Below are positions 3,003 to 55,439 of a stretch of DNA of 64,000 nucleotides, piece after piece; positions within the stretch are counted from its first letter, which is position 1, and the number at the start of each line of letters is the position of its first letter. The stretch comes from Thermococcus sp. M39 (GTDB lineage Archaea; Methanobacteriota_B; Thermococci; Thermococcales; Thermococcaceae). The position numbers and the translations under genes are program-made. The notes under the pieces were generated by a model. That model searched no databases and was not told the origin of the DNA. It was given only the letters and a program-made list of their open reading frames with translations. Where the stretch lies: NCBI RefSeq assembly GCF_012027325.1, contig NZ_SNUG01000002.1, positions 327,211 through 391,210 on the forward strand, in the 5' to 3' direction.

Positions 3003-4181
3003 TCAGCCAATCTGAAATGCTGTACTTCTCAATTCTCCACGCTCGAATCTGTGTGGGTCATACCACTCCCAGTCAAGTGGAACTTTGCTCTTTCCTTTCA
3101 CTATCAGCTCTGCAATTGCCTCACCAACTCCAGGAGCCATCATAAAGCCGTGCCCAGAGAAGCCTGCAGCAATGTAAAGCTCATCTACATACTGAATCCT
3201 CCCAATTGCGGGATTGCTGTCTGGAGTTTTTGCATAAAATCCAGCCCATTGCCTAACGACATGCACATACTTCAAAGCCGGAATAATTTTTGTCGCCCAT
3301 TTCAAGACCTCTCTTAGGAAATCATAAGTTGGCTGGACATCATCTAGGCTTAAAGGCTCTTTTTCAAGCCCAGTTCCGCACATGACACCGCCATCTTCAC
3401 CATCTTGTATAACATAAGAGTCGTTCCACGCTGGAGGGCATGTTAAAGGCTCAATTTGGCCAGGAGCTATTGGTTCAGTTTTTACTATTTGGTGCTTATA
3501 CGGCCTTATTGGGATAAAATCTCTCTCCAATCCAGCCATTTCATTTATTATTGGTGCCCAAGCATTTGCAGCATTCACGACTATGCCAGTCTTTATCACA
3601 CCTTTCTCTGTTTTCACTCCCTTAATCTCTCCGTTCTCAACAATAAGTCCAGTCACTGGTGTGTGCTCATATATTTCAACTCCCATTTCCCTAGCTTTCC
3701 TTGCAAATGCATAGACTACCCTAAATGGGCATGCTTTTCCATCTGCTGGATTCCATGCTCCCGCTAAGAAAGGCTCTGTATTGAGGGGAGGGACAATTTC
3801 CTTAGCTTCGTCCATATCAATAAGCCTCGTGGGAACACCAAACTTGTTTTGGAGCTTTATATTCTGCTTGAAAGCTTCGACTTCTTCCTCAGTAGTCGCT
3901 AAAAACAGATATCCAGTTTGTTTAAAGTGGATATCATATTCAAGCTCCTCGCTCAAATTTTTCCATCTCTCAATGTTGTATTTTTGGAGCTTTATATTGG
4001 CTTCATCTGTAAATTGTGCCCTGATTCCAGAAGCACACCTGAAAGTTGAGCCCGAGCCGAGATAGTTCTTCTCAAGCAAAACAACGTCCTCAACGCCAAG
4101 TTTTGCCAAGTGATAGGCAATTGAAGCCCCTGTGCTTCCGCCGCCGATAATAACAACTTCGGCTTTACTCTTCATTCTCAT
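3003..4181 (-). CDS. pdhB: Dye-linked L-proline dehydrogenase, beta (catalytic FAD) subunit
   Basis: FAD-dependent amine/amino-acid dehydrogenase of the DAO/sarcosine oxidase beta family (about 392 residues). The N-terminal dinucleotide fold has VVIIGGGSTGASIAYHLA, followed by the family segment GSGSTFRCASGIRAQFTDE and the C-terminal FAD motif AAGFSGHGFMMAPG. In Thermococcales such a subunit oxidises L-proline to pyrroline-5-carboxylate in the alpha-beta-gamma-delta PDH complex. It is last in the operon pdhA-F-X-B; its start lies inside the end of pdhX. ATG 4181 was preferred because GGAG and AGGTGA lie upstream; ATG 4175 is also possible. The substrate could be another secondary amine. Confidence 0.85.
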   Translation of the reverse strand: MRMKSKAEVVIIGGGSTGASIAYHLAKLGVEDVVLLEKNYLGSGSTFRCASGIRAQFTDEANIKLQKYNIERWKNLSEELEYDIHFKQTGYLFLATTEEEVEAFKQNIKLQNKFGVPTRLIDMDEAKEIVPPLNTEPFLAGAWNPADGKACPFRVVYAFARKAREMGVEIYEHTPVTGLIVENGEIKGVKTEKGVIKTGIVVNAANAWAPIINEMAGLERDFIPIRPYKHQIVKTEPIAPGQIEPLTCPPAWNDSYVIQDGEDGGVMCGTGLEKEPLSLDDVQPTYDFLREVLKWATKIIPALKYVHVVRQWAGFYAKTPDSNPAIGRIQYVDELYIAAGFSGHGFMMAPGVGEAIAELIVKGKSKVPLDWEWYDPHRFERGELRSTAFQIG

Positions 4182-4458
4182 CACTCTCCATTTCACCTAC
4201 TAATACTCCAGCTGGAACAGGTCTCACGGGGATTCTCGTTGCAGGAAGCTTGATCTCCTCTGGTTTTTTACCAGTCTTCCTTGCGAGGATTGAAACTACC
4301 ATCGGAAGGCAAGTCCTCCCTTGACACGGCCCCATACCAATTCTTAGAAGCCTCTTTATCATCTCAATGTCTGTGATTCCTTGGTCAATTAAAGCCTCAA
4401 TCTCTTCTTGGGTAACTTCATTACAGCGACAAATTATGATGTTTTTCTTATCGCTCAT
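4165..4458 (-). CDS. pdhX: PDH delta subunit, BFD-like [2Fe-2S] protein
   Basis: Small protein (97 residues) of the bacterioferritin-associated-ferredoxin-like family. Four cysteines are in the expected CxC...CxxxxC pattern (CRC at the N-terminus and GPCQGRTC in the middle), so a [2Fe-2S] cluster is predicted. It should pass electrons between the flavin subunits of the proline dehydrogenase complex. It overlaps pdhF by four bases (ATGA) and pdhB by 17 bases. Confidence 0.85.
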   Translation of the reverse strand: MSDKKNIIICRCNEVTQEEIEALIDQGITDIEMIKRLLRIGMGPCQGRTCLPMVVSILARKTGKKPEEIKLPATRIPVRPVPAGVLVGEMESDENEE

Positions 4459-4961
4459 TCTCTCACCACCTTGACAGCCCTAACTTCCCAAGCGAGCTCA
4501 ATTGGCATCTCTACGGTTATTATTGGTGTATCCCCCTTGCTCTTCTCTCTTGGGACTACCGTAATCACTTTTCCTCTTCCCACTTCTTCTCCAACTCTAT
4601 TGAGCAGAATCACTTCCTCCCCAACCTTTGGGACTGGTAAAAGCTCATGAGGCATGGTCACCCTGGCTTTATCTCCAACGTAGTGAACCATGAAGAACGC
4701 CAAGCCGGGACAAATCTGCACACAGAGAGAACAGCCGATGCACTTCTCGTAATCAACAATTGGAATTGCATTCGGGTTTTCCATGAGAACAGCATTTGTA
4801 GGACAGATTTCCTTACATGGCGTACAGGGGATTTCTTGAGGACATTCCGGAATCGCAACGGGTCTCTTTCTCAATCTTTCTTCGCTGGGAAGCTTTATAA
4901 TCTGCTTGAGCTCTTCAACTGTTATGAATCCCTCTCTGAGGTAGTGCGGGATTTCACTCAT
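4455..4961 (-). CDS. pdhF: PDH gamma subunit, 2[4Fe-4S] ferredoxin-like protein
   Basis: Electron-transfer subunit of 168 residues. Two cysteine clusters are complete: C40, C46, C49, C53 and C74, C77, C80, C84, the second as CIGCSLCVQICP, giving two [4Fe-4S] sites. A C-terminal beta-rich part of about 80 residues follows. Its four-base overlaps with both pdhA and pdhX mark a tight operon. It is the subunit that separates this complete cluster from the paralogous cluster at 6554-9190, which has none. Confidence 0.85.
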   Translation of the reverse strand: MSEIPHYLREGFITVEELKQIIKLPSEERLRKRPVAIPECPQEIPCTPCKEICPTNAVLMENPNAIPIVDYEKCIGCSLCVQICPGLAFFMVHYVGDKARVTMPHELLPVPKVGEEVILLNRVGEEVGRGKVITVVPREKSKGDTPIITVEMPIELAWEVRAVKVVRE

Positions 4962-6394
4962 TCTATCACCACCTTCTTAATGCCCTCAAGAACTTTCCTA
5001 CCAAATGGTCCAGCTCTAAACTCATCAAGCTCCTTCTGAGCTTTTTCTATTTCCCTTAGCCATTCTGGTGAGGCGATGCCAATTTCCAGAGCAGCAGCAA
5101 TTCCAGCTATTTTGCCCTCAAGCATTGCCGTTGTTGCCTCTTCAATTCCTGCCGAATCTCCAGCAACAAATATACCCTTAATTGTTGTTTCCATTCTGCT
5201 GTCTCTAATCACAACGTGCCCTCCAAGTTCTGGGACGTATTTAATCTGACAGCCAACCTGATGAAGGAGCTCTATGCTCGGCCTTAGTCCAACAGCTAGG
5301 GCAATTACATCAACATCGAATACTTTTTCGGTTCCTGGAATTGGTCTCCATTTTTCGTCAATTTGGGCGACAACTGCTCTCTCAACCTTTTCTTTCCCTT
5401 CAGCTCTAAGAATAGTGTGCCTTGTCAGAATTGGGACGCCTAATCTTCTAACCTTTGCTGCGTGAACGAAATAGCCTCCAATCTTTGGCATAGCCTCAAC
5501 TATCGCTTTTACTTCAACGCCAGCTTGGATTAGCTGATAAGCTAAGATTAATCCAACGTTTCCGGCACCAACAATGAGAACTCTATCTCCCGGTTTGACT
5601 CCATATGTGTTCATGAGCGTTTGAATTGCTCCTGCCCCATAAACGCCCGGTAAGTCATTACCTTCAAAAGGTATCATCTTTTCCATTGCTCCAGTTGCCA
5701 CAATAACAGCTTTTCCTCTAAACTCAATCAGCTCTTTATTTTTCCTGACCCCAACTACGAGCTTTTCATCTCCATCTTGGAGAAGCATTATCGCTGAGGT
5801 TTCAAGGAAAATCTCGATGTTTTCTCTTTCCCTAATCTCTTCCTCTAAAATTTCTGCTATCTTAACTCCTCTAACTCCCGCAAACTGCTCCCTTTTTCCG
5901 AAGAACTTATGGGTCTGCTTTACCAACTGACCTCCGAGCATTGGGTTTTCATCAAGAAGGATAACTTTGGCCCCAGCATCGGCAGCATTTATTGCTGCCA
6001 TTAAGCCTGCTGGACCACCGCCAATAATTACAATATCCCCAGAAACCTTTTTTGCATCCTTCCATTTTGGAGGCTTTGCATCCTTGGGCAACTTTGGTTT
6101 GCCTTTTTGTCTCTCTACCCTCATACCATCCTCAACAAGGGTTATACAAGTTCTTACGTTTGGAATTCCATTTACTGTCATTAAACACGAAGCACACTTT
6201 CCAATTGCACAGAACAAGCCGCGGGGTCTGTGTTTGTTAGGAGTGTATCCAAGAACCCTTATGCCCGCAGCGTGTAATGCCGTGGCTATTGTCTCTCCTT
6301 CATATGCTTCAATTGGTTGCCCTTCAAAATAGATTGTGACTTTTTTGCCACGCTTTTCTTGAAAATTCAGAATAGGATGTTCAGTGAGACGCAT
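4958..6394 (-). CDS. pdhA: PDH alpha subunit, NAD(P)H/FAD oxidoreductase with N-terminal [2Fe-2S] domain
   Basis: 478 residues. Residues 15-95 are a Fer2_4-type [2Fe-2S] domain with C62, C67, C70 and C83. An FAD-binding fold starts at GGGPAG (125-130), and a second dinucleotide-binding fold shows GAGNVG (276-281). A C-terminal FAD motif follows (GIFVAGDSAG). In the known PDH2-type complexes this subunit is an NADH dehydrogenase/electron transferase partner of pdhB. ATG 6394 has GGTGA upstream and a TATA box at 6415-6423. First gene of the operon. Confidence 0.88.
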   Translation of the reverse strand: MRLTEHPILNFQEKRGKKVTIYFEGQPIEAYEGETIATALHAAGIRVLGYTPNKHRPRGLFCAIGKCASCLMTVNGIPNVRTCITLVEDGMRVERQKGKPKLPKDAKPPKWKDAKKVSGDIVIIGGGPAGLMAAINAADAGAKVILLDENPMLGGQLVKQTHKFFGKREQFAGVRGVKIAEILEEEIRERENIEIFLETSAIMLLQDGDEKLVVGVRKNKELIEFRGKAVIVATGAMEKMIPFEGNDLPGVYGAGAIQTLMNTYGVKPGDRVLIVGAGNVGLILAYQLIQAGVEVKAIVEAMPKIGGYFVHAAKVRRLGVPILTRHTILRAEGKEKVERAVVAQIDEKWRPIPGTEKVFDVDVIALAVGLRPSIELLHQVGCQIKYVPELGGHVVIRDSRMETTIKGIFVAGDSAGIEEATTAMLEGKIAGIAAALEIGIASPEWLREIEKAQKELDEFRAGPFGRKVLEGIKKVVIE

Positions 6395-6414
6395 TATGTT
6401 TCACCAGCATGAAA

Positions 6415-6423
6415 TATATAAAA
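6415..6423 (-). promoter_or_regulatory. TATA box of the pdhAFXB operon
   Basis: On the minus strand TTTTATATA lies 21-29 bases before the pdhA start codon, so the transcript has almost no leader. No clear palindrome is seen beside it. Confidence 0.6.
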
Positions 6424-6553
6424 CCTTATTTATGAGGATTTTTTCATAAAAAAGTTTTGCACCTTTGGTTGTTTTCCATTTTGGATTTTAAGCGAGAAAA
6501 ATGGATAAATACAAAAATAATCAGCTAATCAGTGAAAATTTTTCAATAAATTC

Positions 6554-7693
6554 TCATCCCATCTGCAGAGCTGTCTCTCTGAGCTCTCCCCTCTCAAAGC
6601 AATACGGGTCATACCATTCAATCGGCAAATCTGTCTTTCCTCTCGTCATCAAATCTGCAAGCATCTCAGCAACCGCCGGAGCCATCATGAAGCCGTGTCC
6701 GCTAAAGCCAGCAGCAATGTAGAATTCGTCTATCTCTTTTATTCTTCCAATCACCGGGTTGCTGTCTGGTGTTTTAGCATAAAATCCTGCCCACGTTCTA
6801 AGTATCAGAAGTTCTCCGAGAGCGGGAATTATCTTTGTAAAGGCCTTGCTGACTTCCCTTATGAACTCATAAGTAGGTGTCAAATCGTAGGTAGGACCGT
6901 ACTCAATACCTACACCGCCAATTATCCCTCCATGATCTGTTTGGGTTAGATATGCATCATTATATTTGAGGGATATAACCATTGGATTAATTTGCCCCTC
7001 TTTGAGCGGCTGTGTGATAACTCCTTGATGCTTGTATGGCTCAATCGGAATTCTAATTGGGATTTTAGCCATTGCATTGATGAGCTTAGCCCATGCATTT
7101 GCTGCATTGATAACAATCCCTGTCTCTATAACACCTTTGTTCGTTTTTACGCCCTTAATTTCACCGTTTTCAACTATTATGTCCTTGGCTTCAGTGTACT
7201 CAAGGATTTTGGCACCAAGTTTCTCTGCTTCCTTTGCAAACGCAGTTGTGGCAAAGAATGGGTCAGCCTTTCCATCAGTTGGGTTCCAAGATGCTGCAAT
7301 TACTTCACTTGTATCCAAAAGAGGAACAATTTCCTTAGCTTCTTCTGGAGTTATCAGCCTCGTGGGAACACCAAACTTGTTCTGAAGCTTGATGTTCCTT
7401 TTGAATTCCTTCACCTCTCCATCATCATACAAAAGAAACAGATATCCCGTTTGTTTAAACGGAAAATTAAGCTCCTCACTGTATTTTTTCCACAGCTCAA
7501 CTGAGCGTCTCATAACCCTAATGTTGGCCTCATCAGTAAACTGCTGTCTTATCCCAGTTCCGCACCTGAAAGTTGAACCTGAGCCGATATACTTCTTTTC
7601 CAGTACTGTAACATCCTCTCCCCTCTTTGCAAGCTCATAAGCAAGTGTAACTCCAACGATTCCACCGCCAATGATAACAATCTCACTCCTCAT
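6554..7693 (-). CDS. DAO-family FAD amino-acid/amine dehydrogenase, beta subunit of the second cluster
   Basis: 379 residues, clearly paralogous to the pdhB product at 3003: same GGGIVG FAD motif, same GSGSTFRCGTGIRQQFTDEA segment, same AAGFSGHGFMMAP motif and same RFERGEL-type ending. It keeps all expected flavin-binding features and so probably still oxidises an amine or imino acid. It overlaps the BFD-like gene upstream by 11 bases; GGTGAT just before ATG 7693 sets the start. Its redox partner (7976-9190) is altered, so its electron route must differ. The substrate is unknown. Confidence 0.8.
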   Translation of the reverse strand: MRSEIVIIGGGIVGVTLAYELAKRGEDVTVLEKKYIGSGSTFRCGTGIRQQFTDEANIRVMRRSVELWKKYSEELNFPFKQTGYLFLLYDDGEVKEFKRNIKLQNKFGVPTRLITPEEAKEIVPLLDTSEVIAASWNPTDGKADPFFATTAFAKEAEKLGAKILEYTEAKDIIVENGEIKGVKTNKGVIETGIVINAANAWAKLINAMAKIPIRIPIEPYKHQGVITQPLKEGQINPMVISLKYNDAYLTQTDHGGIIGGVGIEYGPTYDLTPTYEFIREVSKAFTKIIPALGELLILRTWAGFYAKTPDSNPVIGRIKEIDEFYIAAGFSGHGFMMAPAVAEMLADLMTRGKTDLPIEWYDPYCFERGELRETALQMG

Positions 7694-7979
7694 TTGCCAT
7701 CACCTTCATCTTCACTGGTCTGACGGGCATTCTGGCAACGGGCAGCTTTATCTCCTTCAAGTTCTTCCCCGTCCTCCATGCAATTATCTGAGCCACTGTG
7801 TCAATGCAGTACCTCCCTTGGCAGAACCCCATGCCTACATGGGTTAACCTTTTAATCAATTGGATGTCTGTAATCCCCTGATCAATTAAGTCGAGGATGT
7901 CTTTCAGCGTAACATCACATCCACAGATAAAGACTTTCTCGGGATTGACTTTCTCCAAATCAATGTTGAGCTTGATCAT
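7683..7979 (-). CDS. BFD-like [2Fe-2S] protein of the second dehydrogenase cluster
   Basis: 98 residues, paralogue of pdhX. All four cluster cysteines are kept (CGC and GFCQGRYC), so a [2Fe-2S] cluster is predicted even though the partner alpha subunit has lost its own. It overlaps both neighbours (4 and 11 bases) and belongs to the three-gene operon 9190-6554. N-terminal residues before CGC are longer than in pdhX. Confidence 0.8.
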   Translation of the reverse strand: MIKLNIDLEKVNPEKVFICGCDVTLKDILDLIDQGITDIQLIKRLTHVGMGFCQGRYCIDTVAQIIAWRTGKNLKEIKLPVARMPVRPVKMKVMANEE

Positions 7980-9190
7980 AAAATCACCTCCTCGAGAAGA
8001 GACGCCTTATCTCCAATTTTCTTGAAAAATTCCGCCTTTATATGGTTAGCATTGCTTTTGAACCTAAATTCTTCAAGGATATAAGCTCCGACCAATCTGC
8101 CCTCAAGATAGTTCTCATAACCCCCTTTAATCCAAGAAGCGTTTCCAGCTATGTAAACTCCGTCAACAACCTCGTTTCTCTTATTTCTCAGAGGAATGTA
8201 TCCACCCAATTCTTCTACATATGTTATCTTAGCTCCCACTTGCTGGGCTAAATGTATATCTGGCCTATATCCCTCCGCTATGATTAGAGCATCTGTTTCA
8301 TAGACGTTCCCTTCTGCATCTATAACCCTCTCAACTTCATTTTTACCTTCTGCCCTTACTATTGGGACCTCAATGAGCGTATAATTCAGACCGTGATTTT
8401 CCAATTCCTTTGCAATGTTTTGAGAATTGCTGCCGTAGAGTGTTATCTTGTTCCCAGGCTTGACGCCCCAGATGTTTAGCAATTCAAGAACAAAATCCTC
8501 TCTAAAGACTCCAGGCATTTCGTTGTTCTCAAATAGTGCAAATTTTGCTATTCCACCTGTTGAGATGACGATTCTCTTAGTAGTAACTTCTATCAGATCA
8601 TTCCCTCTATTTGCAACCACAATGAAATACTCTCCATTACGGAAGACACCAAGGACAGGTGTTCTTGTAAATGCTTTAGCCCTCAGCTTTTCAACAAGTT
8701 CCTTTCTGAACTCTTTCGACTTCTTGCCGTTACTGAGATGTGTGCTCCTCTTTAACAGACCCCAACCTAGCTTTCCTTTTTCCTCAAAAATCATGACATC
8801 CAGATCATCTTGCATTTCCAAAGCAGCACCTAATCCCGCAGCACCGCTGCCAACAATCACAACATCTGTATAATGTCCTTCTACTTTTCCAGTCTCTCCT
8901 AAATGCTCTGGCAGTGGCTCCATGTAGCTCTGCATTTCAATTTTCATCCCATCCCAGACTTTAGTTTTTCTACCATCATAGTTTCTAACACCGTTGATAG
9001 TTACAAGGACAGGGCCAAAAGTAAATGCTCCTCTCTTTCTCCCGTGTCCGCTTAATGTAATCCATTTTATTCCATTTGCAAGCAGTGCAACGTGAATCGG
9101 CTCTCCTTCGTATGCCTCCAAGGACTTTCCTTCAAAATATATTGTAACCTTTTTAGAAGAGTCCTTCTCGTACAAGTCCAAAGGACGCAT
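7976..9190 (-). CDS. Degenerate PDH alpha-like FAD protein without Fe-S cysteines
   Basis: 404 residues, homologous to pdhA over its whole length but shorter. The N-terminal ferredoxin-like domain is present (VTIYFEGKSLEAYEGE) yet the cysteine loop is shortened to GAFTFGPVLVTING, and the entire protein contains no cysteine. The FAD motif is kept as GSGAAG (114-119). The second nucleotide site, GAGNVG in pdhA, reads GSNSQN here, so NAD(P)H binding is doubtful. The C-terminal FAD motif survives as GVYIAGNAS. The frame is open with AGGTGAC before ATG 9190, so it is a functional gene, probably a structural or flavin-only subunit. Confidence 0.82.
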   Translation of the reverse strand: MRPLDLYEKDSSKKVTIYFEGKSLEAYEGEPIHVALLANGIKWITLSGHGRKRGAFTFGPVLVTINGVRNYDGRKTKVWDGMKIEMQSYMEPLPEHLGETGKVEGHYTDVVIVGSGAAGLGAALEMQDDLDVMIFEEKGKLGWGLLKRSTHLSNGKKSKEFRKELVEKLRAKAFTRTPVLGVFRNGEYFIVVANRGNDLIEVTTKRIVISTGGIAKFALFENNEMPGVFREDFVLELLNIWGVKPGNKITLYGSNSQNIAKELENHGLNYTLIEVPIVRAEGKNEVERVIDAEGNVYETDALIIAEGYRPDIHLAQQVGAKITYVEELGGYIPLRNKRNEVVDGVYIAGNASWIKGGYENYLEGRLVGAYILEEFRFKSNANHIKAEFFKKIGDKASLLEEVIL

Positions 9191-9204: not shown

Positions 9205-9285
9205 TGATTTTGGTCTTATAGTTTCATAATCGTAAAACTCTTTAAAACTTATAAACCTTGATATTAAAACTTATAGTTTTAAACC
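9205..9285 (-). promoter_or_regulatory. Promoter region with repeated CTTATA/TATAAG motifs
   Basis: Upstream of the second dehydrogenase operon, CTTATAGTTT occurs twice (near 9217 and 9270) and ACTTATAAA once. The copy at 9264-9282 is a perfect inverted repeat (TTAAAAC-TTATA-GTTTTAA). These may be operator copies around the TATA box. Confidence 0.4.
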
Positions 9286-9419
9286 AAAAGTTAAAAGAAA
9301 AGGAAATCAAGCAAGACTCTTAGCTTTAAACTAAGCAACATTTTCAATCTGGCTCTTTGCCGACAATCATGATACGCAGCCGATAGCAAAGATTACCGCA
9401 GGGTTGGCAGATCTTTTAA

Positions 9420-9563
9420 GGCGTCAATGAACTCATGACGAGCAAAATAAAGCGTGATAAATCCAACTAAGAATAGCACTAAAAGAAAGCCATTTCACTT
9501 CAGCTCTACTGCCTCTCTAAGGTCTTTTGACTTAGTGTATTCAGCAACTTCAAGCCATGCTTT
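9420..9563 (-). pseudogene. Decayed membrane-protein remnant
   Basis: The 9300-9775 interval has no intact gene. On the minus strand a coding-like stretch reads AWLEVAEYTKSKDLREAVEL and then stops at 9497-9495; a neighbouring frame continues KWLSFSAILSWIYHALF. This looks like a frameshifted piece of a small membrane protein, perhaps related to the DUF996-like type seen at 29162. The rest of the interval shows nothing recognisable. Confidence 0.3.
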
Positions 9564-9775
9564 TTATCGAAATAAGTCGAGGGAATTAAAGAGAAAACAA
9601 GTGTGCTTATAACTGTCCATATTTTAAGAGCATAACTTAGGAGTTTTGATGTCACATAAAGCCCACCAAAAACCCAAGAATACCTAAAAAGCTGGACACA
9701 ACAAAAAACTTATGGCAGTGAAAAGCATTTGAACCAGTTCTATATGAAAATATCTCAAAGCAACCAATATCTTTA

Positions 9776-10939
9776 TCATCGGGCATGAATTTCAACAATG
9801 TCACCATCCTCTAATACATGGTCTGCTCCGACCCTCTGCCCTGGGAACTTTACGCTCTTGCCCCACACCCTCGCATATTTGAAGTTCTTAGCAAAGTCCT
9901 TATGGATTCTCTTTGCAACATCCAAAACGGTCGCGCCTTTTTTAAGGGCAATTGGGGGATAAGCTGGCTCCTCTCCTGGTGATTTAGTGAAAATCCTAAT
10001 TATTCCGGCTAGATCATAAAGCGCATCCTTAAGCTTCTCAATATTTATTCCCTTCGTCGCTGAAACCGGGACTATCTTAAAGCGGTCTCCATAGGCCTTG
10101 ACCAATTTTTCATAATTCTCTTTGCTTCCCGGAGCATCGCCCTTGTTTGCGATAATGATGGCTCTCCTCCAAACCAAGCTATCATCTAAAGCATCAGCAA
10201 ACTCTTCAAGGGTTACAGGCTCTTTAACGGTTATCTCAGCTGAATGGATTTTCTCCTCACGGAGCATCCTCATAACTTCCTCAATGTCGCCCTTGATGTT
10301 CTCCTGCCCGTTAATTATAATTCCCCCATAGGGCATCTTCTTGATTTCGATTCTGGGTCTTCTCTTGTTGAGTTTTATTCCAGCTCTTTCAAACTCTTTC
10401 AAAATTATTTCCATCTGCTTGATAGGATCCTGTGAGAGGTCAATAACAATGGCAATTGCATCGGCATTCCTAATCACAGCTAAAAGCTGAGTCCCCATTC
10501 CTTTCCCTAATGCTGCACCCTCAACTAAACCCGGAACCTCAACTATCTGGATTTGAACGTCTTTGTGTTTCATCATTCCCGGAATGGGCTCAACGGTTGT
10601 GAACGGATAATCGGCAACATCAGTATCTACTCCAGTAAGCTGCCTTAGAAGAGAGGATTTACCCACGTTTGGAAGACCAGCGAGGACTATCTGGGCTGCG
10701 CCCTCCTTTTTGACACTAAAAGAATACCCTCCTCCCTTCTTTAAGCTCTGCTGCTTTTCAAGTTCCTTTCTAAGCTCTGCTAATCTTCGTTTTATTTGGA
10801 GTCTGAGCTTTTCTGTTCCTTTGTGCTTTGGAACAGTTGCATACATTTTTTCAAGTGCCCTAATTTTCTCTGCAATTGTCCTCGCGTTCCTATATTCTTC
10901 CTCGGCTGCTAAGTACTCTGCTGTAACATTAGTCGGCAT
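9776..10939 (-). CDS. DRG-family GTP-binding protein with TGS domain
   Basis: 387-residue translational GTPase of the Obg/DRG superfamily. The N-terminal helical part (1-75) is followed by the G domain with G1 GLPNVGKSS, the G3 region VEVPGLVEGAALGKGMG and G4 NKGD. The C-terminal TGS domain begins around IRIFTKSPGEEPAYPP. DRG proteins bind ribosomes and are widely conserved in archaea and eukaryotes. ATG 10939 was chosen because GAGGTGAT precedes it; GTG/ATG codons further up would add three residues. Divergently transcribed from the Lrp-type gene. Confidence 0.92.
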   Translation of the reverse strand: MPTNVTAEYLAAEEEYRNARTIAEKIRALEKMYATVPKHKGTEKLRLQIKRRLAELRKELEKQQSLKKGGGYSFSVKKEGAAQIVLAGLPNVGKSSLLRQLTGVDTDVADYPFTTVEPIPGMMKHKDVQIQIVEVPGLVEGAALGKGMGTQLLAVIRNADAIAIVIDLSQDPIKQMEIILKEFERAGIKLNKRRPRIEIKKMPYGGIIINGQENIKGDIEEVMRMLREEKIHSAEITVKEPVTLEEFADALDDSLVWRRAIIIANKGDAPGSKENYEKLVKAYGDRFKIVPVSATKGINIEKLKDALYDLAGIIRIFTKSPGEEPAYPPIALKKGATVLDVAKRIHKDFAKNFKYARVWGKSVKFPGQRVGADHVLEDGDIVEIHAR

Positions 10940-53924: not shown

Positions 53925-55439
53925 TCAGAAGAGCTCGTCAACGATTCCTGCCAAGGTCTTGAGCTCTGGAGTGGCCGCTCCTCCTTTTATTACAACCTTT
54001 TTACCCGCCGCATACTCTACAATTTCTTGTATTTCCTTTGGTGGCTCTTTAGTGAGCAAGCTGACTACTATTATTGCAATCATTGAGAACACGAAGCCAG
54101 GTATCATTTCGTACCATGGACGCCAGCTTAAACCCGCTTGCTTCCATGCAATGACTGTAAGGGCACCCACAATCATACCTGCAATTGCCCCTTCCTTTGT
54201 GGCCCTCTTCCAATAAAGTCCCAAGATGACAACTGGGCCAAATGAACACGCTAAGCCGGCCCATGCATATAGAACTAGCTTGAACACTGTCTCAGTCGCT
54301 CCAAGTGCTAAGTAGATTGATAGCAAGCTCACTACAAGAACCGAGATTCTGCTTATCCAGACAAGCTTGTCTTGATCAGCATCTGGGTTTATCATCTTGT
54401 TGTAGATGTCTCTCGCTAATGCAGAAGCTACAACTAGGAGATATGAGTTTGCACTCGACATTATTGCCGCGGCCATGGCTGCTATCAAGATTCCAGCAAA
54501 AACAGGCGGAAGCATTTCCTTCGTCAAAGCCATTAGTGAAAGCTCAGGCTTTACATCTGGGAGGAGAACCCTTGCAGCAATACCACCAAGTGTTACCCCA
54601 TAGAGAGCTATTACAGCCCAGACAACTGCTGCAAGAAGCGAGTACTTGAGCATCTTTGAATCTTTAATTGCCATGAATCTTACATGAAGCTGAGGCTGAC
54701 CAAGGTAGCCAAGGTAGCCTATTGCGAGGAAGCCGAGAAGTGTTATTGGAGCAACCCAAACATTGGTAAGCTTAGGATCAATTGCATTCAGCTTATCGTA
54801 CATCGCTGTAAATCCACCGATTTTTGCTATTGCAAGTCCTGGAACAACAACGGCACCAATAAACATCAGGACTGCCTGCACAACGTCGGTGTAAACCGCT
54901 GCAGCGAATCCACCAAGAAGAACATATATGAGAACAGTAAGCGCTCCGATTATAGCTCCCCATTTGTATGGGATTCCAGTTAGGAACTCAAGAGTTCTAC
55001 CCATTGCAACGGTTTGAGCCGCTGTATAAGCTGTTAGGAATATAAATATTATAGCCACTGAAATTATTCTAACATAATGGCTCTGGTCATAATACCTTGC
55101 CTCGAGGAAGTCTGGAATTGTTATTGCTCCTACTTTCTCTGTAAATCTCCTAAGCCTCTTTCCGAGTATTGTGAAGTTCACTAAAGGCCCACCAGCACTT
55201 GTCATTGGCACCCAGACACTTCCGAATCCTAAAGAGTATCCTTTACCGGGCATTCCTTGGAACATATAACCACTCATTGCTGTTGCTTGGTGGGTAAGGG
55301 CTATTGTAAATGGTCCAAAGCGCCTCTTTCCAAGGAAGTATCCCTCTATCGATTCGCTGCCTATCCTATATGTTAGTACTCCAATAGCTATCATTGCCAC
55401 CAGATAGACCACAAAGGAAGCTACTATTATGTCCATCAT
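53925..55439 (-). CDS. Sodium:solute symporter (SSS family, PutP-like)
   Basis: 504 residues with 12-13 hydrophobic segments. The SSS family signatures are visible: GYFLGKRRFGPFTIALTHQA at the start and the region GGFAAAVYTDVVQAVLMFIG. It should use the sodium gradient to import an organic solute; annotated as proline symporter in relatives. Its start overlaps the stop of a 33-residue gene. The divergent neighbour is the 5-oxoprolinase operon, so 5-oxoproline is a reasonable alternative substrate. Confidence 0.88.
   Translation of the reverse strand: MMDIIVASFVVYLVAMIAIGVLTYRIGSESIEGYFLGKRRFGPFTIALTHQATAMSGYMFQGMPGKGYSLGFGSVWVPMTSAGGPLVNFTILGKRLRRFTEKVGAITIPDFLEARYYDQSHYVRIISVAIIFIFLTAYTAAQTVAMGRTLEFLTGIPYKWGAIIGALTVLIYVLLGGFAAAVYTDVVQAVLMFIGAVVVPGLAIAKIGGFTAMYDKLNAIDPKLTNVWVAPITLLGFLAIGYLGYLGQPQLHVRFMAIKDSKMLKYSLLAAVVWAVIALYGVTLGGIAARVLLPDVKPELSLMALTKEMLPPVFAGILIAAMAAAIMSSANSYLLVVASALARDIYNKMINPDADQDKLVWISRISVLVVSLLSIYLALGATETVFKLVLYAWAGLACSFGPVVILGLYWKRATKEGAIAGMIVGALTVIAWKQAGLSWRPWYEMIPGFVFSMIAIIVVSLLTKEPPKEIQEIVEYAAGKKVVIKGGAATPELKTLAGIVDELF

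What the first reader, a model, noticed from the sequence alone, without database searches (positions are those of the whole stretch)
7976..9190. PDH alpha-like subunit that has lost all cysteines and the NAD(P)H motif
Compared with pdhA (C62, C67, C70, C83; GAGNVG), this protein has a shortened ferredoxin loop with no cysteine and reads GSNSQN at the second nucleotide site. The FAD motif is intact, and the frame is open with good signals. The neighbouring beta and BFD-like subunits keep all their ligands, and the gamma ferredoxin is missing. The complex must therefore use another electron route, with the BFD-like [2Fe-2S] as the only cluster.
Basis: seen in the sequence. Interest (0 to 1): 0.65.

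Follow-up and report, generated by a model that had tools for sequence, protein, structure and literature searches.

The report
Ordinary ATP-type proline dehydrogenase alpha subunit
This gene encodes one subunit of a known heat-loving archaeal enzyme complex that oxidises the amino acid proline; the missing cysteines and changed nucleotide site are the normal, long-conserved state of this enzyme type, and the only unusual point is that its iron-sulfur part is a separate small protein instead of being fused on.

Summary
The 404-aa protein has no cysteine, reads TFGPV where pdhA has CAIGKCASC, and GSNSQN where pdhA has GAGNVG. It is not a strange loss. The protein is the orthologue of PH1363 (1Y56 chain A), the alpha subunit of the PDH1-type dye-linked L-proline dehydrogenase of Pyrococcus horikoshii, whose complex was solved in 2005 with FAD, FMN and ATP. 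All 75 Thermococcaceae PDH1 alphas long enough to compare lack the ferredoxin cysteines and the NAD motif, and have lost about 29 residues of the NAD domain; the cysteine loss was published in 2007. The gene is under strong purifying selection, so decay is excluded. One correction: the FAD signature is only half kept; the distal Gly-Asp is Asn or Ser in every PDH1, consistent with ATP instead of FAD in this subunit. Likely electron path: proline to FAD (beta) to FMN (alpha/beta interface), then probably the BFD-like [2Fe-2S]; no NAD(P)H branch. Slightly new: in this species and six relatives the Cys-cluster (BFD) domain is a separate gene, whereas 67 other PDH1 alphas carry it fused. Outgroup comparison suggests the split state preceded the fusion.

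The parts
7976..9190 (-). PDH1-type alpha subunit, 404 aa, split form (no C-terminal BFD domain)
   Evidence: phmmer to 1Y56_A (PH1363) E 3.5e-111 over residues 1-379; Foldseek of the model to 1Y56_A E 1.7e-49, TM 0.84
9008..9022 (-). TFGPV (residues 57-61) in place of the Cys loop of the ferredoxin-like N-terminal domain
   Evidence: alignment of 75 PDH1 alpha and 19 pdhA sequences
8834..8851 (-). GSGAAG (residues 114-119), first dinucleotide-fold motif; by orthology the ATP site
   Evidence: ATP assignment from the 1Y56 paper title and memory
8417..8434 (-). GSNSQN (residues 253-258), remnant of the second (NAD) motif; about 29 residues that follow in pdhA are deleted
8132..8149 (-). AGNASW (residues 348-353), where FAD-binding pdhA has AGD; the flavin-ribityl Asp is lost
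7683..7979 (-). BFD-like [2Fe-2S] subunit, 98 aa, C19/C21/C53/C58; equals residues 402-492 of fused PH1363
6554..7693 (-). PDH1 beta subunit (FAD, DAO family), catalytic proline dehydrogenase by orthology
   Evidence: 80% identical to the beta beside PH1363 in L054
9195..9202 (-). Shine-Dalgarno-like GAAGGTGA before the alpha start, conserved in relatives
9248..9257 (-). TATA-like element GGTTTATAAG, conserved upstream of the operon in relatives
   Evidence: read by eye from the alignment; not tested for function
4958..6394 (-). pdhA, alpha subunit of the neighbouring PDH2-type (alpha-beta-gamma-delta) complex, the paralogue used for comparison
3003..4961 (-). pdhF (gamma ferredoxin), pdhX (BFD-like delta) and pdhB (beta) of the PDH2-type complex
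   Evidence: layout matches OCC_00347-00332 in PMC4364671

Best explanation
The protein is the alpha subunit of a PDH1-type dye-linked L-proline dehydrogenase, orthologous to PH1363 of P. horikoshii, in a split form where the C-terminal Cys-cluster (BFD) domain is encoded by the next gene. Shown by sequence: orthology, conserved absence of the ferredoxin cysteines, loss of the NAD domain core and of the FAD Gly-Asp, conservation of the BFD cysteines, purifying selection. Inferred: beta oxidises L-proline with FAD; electrons pass to FMN at the alpha/beta interface, then probably to the BFD-type [2Fe-2S] and out to an unknown acceptor; alpha holds ATP structurally or as a regulator and has no NAD(P)H-oxidising branch. 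The N-terminal ferredoxin-like domain is a structural relic or reused interface.
For: 1Y56_A is the best match by sequence (E 3.5e-111) and by fold (E 1.7e-49), and the 98-aa protein matches its residues 402-492 (E 8.2e-31). 75 of 75 PDH1 alphas lack the cysteines, the NAD motif and the Gly-Asp, whereas every PDH2 alpha with residues at those places keeps them. 67 of 67 fused alphas and 7 of 7 distinct split BFD proteins keep CxCx31Cx4C. dN/dS of alpha 0.04-0.08, like beta and pdhA. R-x-W FMN motif kept in beta (motif from PMC4575208). Cysteine loss in the 1Y56 N-terminal domain published (PMC1949818).
Against: Identity to PH1363 is only 51% in alpha (80% in beta), and the crystal structure is of the fused form. 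ATP and FMN binding, the cluster, the substrate and the assembly were not tested for this protein.
Confidence: 0.88

Rival explanations
1. A decaying PDH2-type alpha in one strain: cysteines and NAD motif were lost by relaxed selection.
For: A neighbouring sodium:solute symporter gene, intact beside the operon in G087, G090, G092 and G002, is reduced to a remnant here, so there is some erosion upstream.
Against: Same losses in all orthologues over the whole family; dN/dS 0.04-0.08; tandem, overlapping intact reading frames and conserved signals.
Confidence: 0.01
2. Alpha still binds FAD in the first dinucleotide site, as in opine and hydroxyproline dehydrogenases, and works as a relay to the BFD cluster.
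For: GxGxxG and the ribose-binding acid are conserved; the related OpnDH alpha was reported to hold FAD (PMC4575208).
Against: The distal Gly-Asp is lost in all 75 PDH1 alphas; the solved orthologous complex is described as FAD-, FMN- and ATP-containing (title cited in PMC4575208 and PMC1949818).
Confidence: 0.07
3. The split BFD subunit is exchangeable between the PDH1-type and the adjacent PDH2-type complexes, so the two share electron exits.
For: Both operons encode a free BFD-like protein with a similar Cys spacing; subunit exchange is documented in the related opine dehydrogenases (PMC4575208).
Against: The two BFD proteins differ clearly (PDH2-type ones match the query BFD at about 52-60% in archaea); in most genomes the PDH1 one is fused and so cannot exchange.
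Confidence: 0.04

Closest known systems
PDH1, hetero-octameric (alpha4 beta4) dye-linked L-proline dehydrogenase of Pyrococcus horikoshii (PH1363/PH1364, PDB 1Y56)
   Same: Alpha fold and sequence, cysteine-free ferredoxin-like domain, collapsed NAD domain, DAO-family beta with R-x-W, Cys-clustered BFD domain, no gamma ferredoxin
   Different: BFD domain is a separate 98-aa protein here; alpha is 51% identical
PDH2 / T. profundus PDH (alpha-beta-gamma-delta; pdhA, pdhF, pdhX, pdhB)
   Same: Paralogous subunits, separate BFD-like subunit, tandem neighbour operon in this window
   Different: pdhA keeps four ferredoxin cysteines, NAD motif and FAD Gly-Asp; it has a gamma ferredoxin; alpha 37% identical
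Heterotetrameric sarcosine oxidase (1VRQ, 2GAG)
   Same: The N-terminal part of its alpha subunit has the same fold order; diflavin FAD/FMN logic
   Different: Alpha is about 965 aa with extra domains; bacterial; weak sequence similarity (E 4e-15)
Flavin-containing opine and D-hydroxyproline dehydrogenases (OdhABC)
   Same: FMN between alpha and beta, BFD-type motif in alpha (PMC4575208)
   Different: The ferredoxin-like domain is a separate gamma subunit with its [2Fe-2S]; alpha holds FAD

Membership tests
PDH1-type L-proline dehydrogenase | Alpha homologous to PH1363 over its length | tested here: met
   PDH1 clade 100/100 against pdhA
PDH1-type L-proline dehydrogenase | Ferredoxin-like N-terminal domain without cysteines; no NAD motif | tested here: met
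PDH1-type L-proline dehydrogenase | Cys-cluster (BFD) domain with four cysteines | tested here: met
   CxCx31Cx4C present, as a separate gene
PDH1-type L-proline dehydrogenase | BFD domain fused to alpha (about 490 aa), two-subunit complex; a feature of the characterised member, not needed for the family as drawn by the tree | tested here: not met
   404 + 98 aa in two overlapping genes; six relatives the same. The claim is therefore 'split variant of the PDH1 type', not 'identical to PDH1'
PDH1-type L-proline dehydrogenase | DAO-family beta subunit with FMN-site R-x-W | tested here: met
PDH1-type L-proline dehydrogenase | Contains FAD, FMN and ATP; L-proline:dye activity; no NADH dehydrogenase activity | not testable with these tools
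   needs purified complex
PDH2-type (alpha-beta-gamma-delta) L-proline dehydrogenase | Ferredoxin cysteines and NAD(P)H motif in alpha | tested here: not met
PDH2-type (alpha-beta-gamma-delta) L-proline dehydrogenase | Gamma ferredoxin subunit in the operon | tested here: not met
Heterotetrameric sarcosine oxidase | About 965-aa alpha subunit with extra C-terminal domains | tested here: not met
   404 aa; best matched stretch limited to residues 13-256

The most novel reading that the evidence does not exclude
The seven split-form species preserve the intermediate through which PDH1 arose: a tandem copy of the pdhA-F-X-B operon lost the gamma ferredoxin, the alpha ferredoxin cluster and the NAD site first, and only later fused alpha to the BFD protein; in the split form the [2Fe-2S] subunit could still dissociate or be regulated separately.
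Probability: 0.5. Interest if true: 0.3.

Novelty: new member of a known kind. Interest (0 to 1): 0.17.

Why it matters
It settles that the apparent loss is a family trait, not a new electron route. For specialists it adds a split-gene form of PDH1 that suggests the Fe-S domain was fused after the ferredoxin and NAD sites had been lost, and gives a convenient complex in which the [2Fe-2S] subunit can be left out by omitting one gene.

Tried and rejected
Pseudogene or strain-specific decay: rejected by orthologues and dN/dS. NAD(P) site merely mutated: rejected, about 29 residues are missing in the PDH1 alphas shown, and the acidic end of that beta-alpha-beta unit is a gap in all 75. PDH1-like cysteine-free alphas outside Thermococcaceae: the phylum search and a genome-collection scan gave only weaker matches there, and those that I classified match the pdhA type. 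Full text of the 2005 papers: not held. Claim that the fusion happened exactly once: favoured (98/93) but grouping the fused G088 with the split forms is not rejected (p-AU 0.286).

Full report
Observation. The ORF at 7976-9190 on the minus strand encodes 404 residues with no cysteine. Against pdhA of the neighbouring operon, the loop with three of the four ferredoxin cysteines is shortened to TFGPV, the fourth cysteine is replaced, and GAGNVG reads GSNSQN. The following gene (98 aa) keeps four BFD-type cysteines (C19, C21, C53, C58) and the beta gene is intact. The three genes overlap by 4 and 11 bases. So the description is accurate, except that the FAD fingerprint is only half intact: the distal Gly-Asp of pdhA is Gly-Asn here.

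Identity. The best solved relative is 1Y56 chain A, PH1363 (E 3.5e-111), the alpha subunit of the P. horikoshii L-proline dehydrogenase that the title of its paper calls FAD-, FMN- and ATP-containing (cited in PMC4575208). The 98-aa protein matches residues 402-492 of the same chain. So alpha plus BFD equals PH1363 cut in two. An AlphaFold2 model (mean pLDDT 81, pTM 0.62) has 1Y56_A as its first PDB match by a wide margin. The window therefore holds a PDH1-type operon beside a PDH2-type operon (pdhA, F, X, B), a layout described in T. litoralis (PMC4364671).

Is the loss special? No. I collected PDH1 alphas from 94 Thermococcaceae genomes and a genome collection; 76 distinct sequences were found and 75 were long enough to align. 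None has the ferredoxin cysteines (one has a single unrelated C88). All have the shortened loop, none of the motifs listed at the second site is GxGxxG, the acidic end of the NAD-type fold is a gap in all, and the Gly-Asp is lost in all variants listed; in the sequences shown about 29 residues of the NAD domain are gone. All pdhA sequences keep the cysteines and GAGNVG, and the 14 of 19 that have residues at that place keep the Gly-Asp. The published analysis of the beta-grasp fold already stated that the N-terminal domain of 1Y56 derives from 2Fe-2S ferredoxins by loss of the cysteines (PMC1949818). From memory, not re-read here, the 2005 FEBS J paper reported that PDH1 alpha binds ATP, lacks NADH dehydrogenase activity and has a different ADP-binding motif from PDH2 alpha.

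Function. Purifying selection is strong (dN/dS 0.04-0.08 for alpha, similar for beta, BFD and pdhA). The PDH1 beta subunits keep the R-x-W motif proposed for FMN (PMC4575208). The Cys cluster is invariant in 67 fused and 7 distinct split sequences. The most likely path is proline to FAD to FMN, then the BFD cluster and an unidentified acceptor. The last two steps are inference; ATP in alpha is by orthology.

The split form. Seven Thermococcaceae (the window's genome, G087, G090, G091, G092, G002, G093) have separate alpha and BFD genes; the others examined have a fused alpha of about 490-500 aa. In a tree with pdhA as outgroup the fused forms are one clade (98/93) and the split forms the other (94/63). 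As the PDH2 outgroup also has a separate BFD gene (pdhX), separate genes are the likely older state and fusion came later. This is favoured, not proven: joining the fused form of G088 with the split ones is not rejected (p-AU 0.286). G088 lies in the same genus and its pdhA is 95% identical to that of the window, yet its PDH1 alpha is only 52% identical and fused, which hints at replacement or differential retention of the PDH1 operon in place.

Verdict. The finding is a correct reading of an ordinary, characterised enzyme type. Interest is low; the split form is a small addition.

Noticed in passing
window 9310-9360 (-) and 9300-9776: Remnant of the 3' end (about 18 codons, with an in-frame stop) of a sodium:solute symporter gene that stands intact directly upstream of the PDH1 operon in G087, G092, G090 and G002; no close copy elsewhere in the window's genome (best other match 37%).
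   Followed up: yes
L092 (G088) 5698-7200 and 4569-5711: PDH1 operon of a same-genus genome is fused and only 52% identical in alpha although the adjacent pdhA is 95% identical: possible replacement of the PDH1 operon in place.
   Followed up: partly
L092 7331-8317 and 8378-9385: Ornithine cyclodeaminase-family and proline racemase-family genes beside the PDH cluster, like the hydroxyproline cluster described in T. litoralis; not seen directly beside the cluster in the window.
   Followed up: no
L046-L049: Bacterial relatives (WOR-3, Bacillota, Vermiphilus) seem to encode the pdhA-type ferredoxin domain and the flavin domain as two adjacent reading frames.
   Followed up: no
window 53925-55439: A second sodium:solute symporter-like gene, 34-37% identical to the lost one, which might take over proline uptake.
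   Followed up: no
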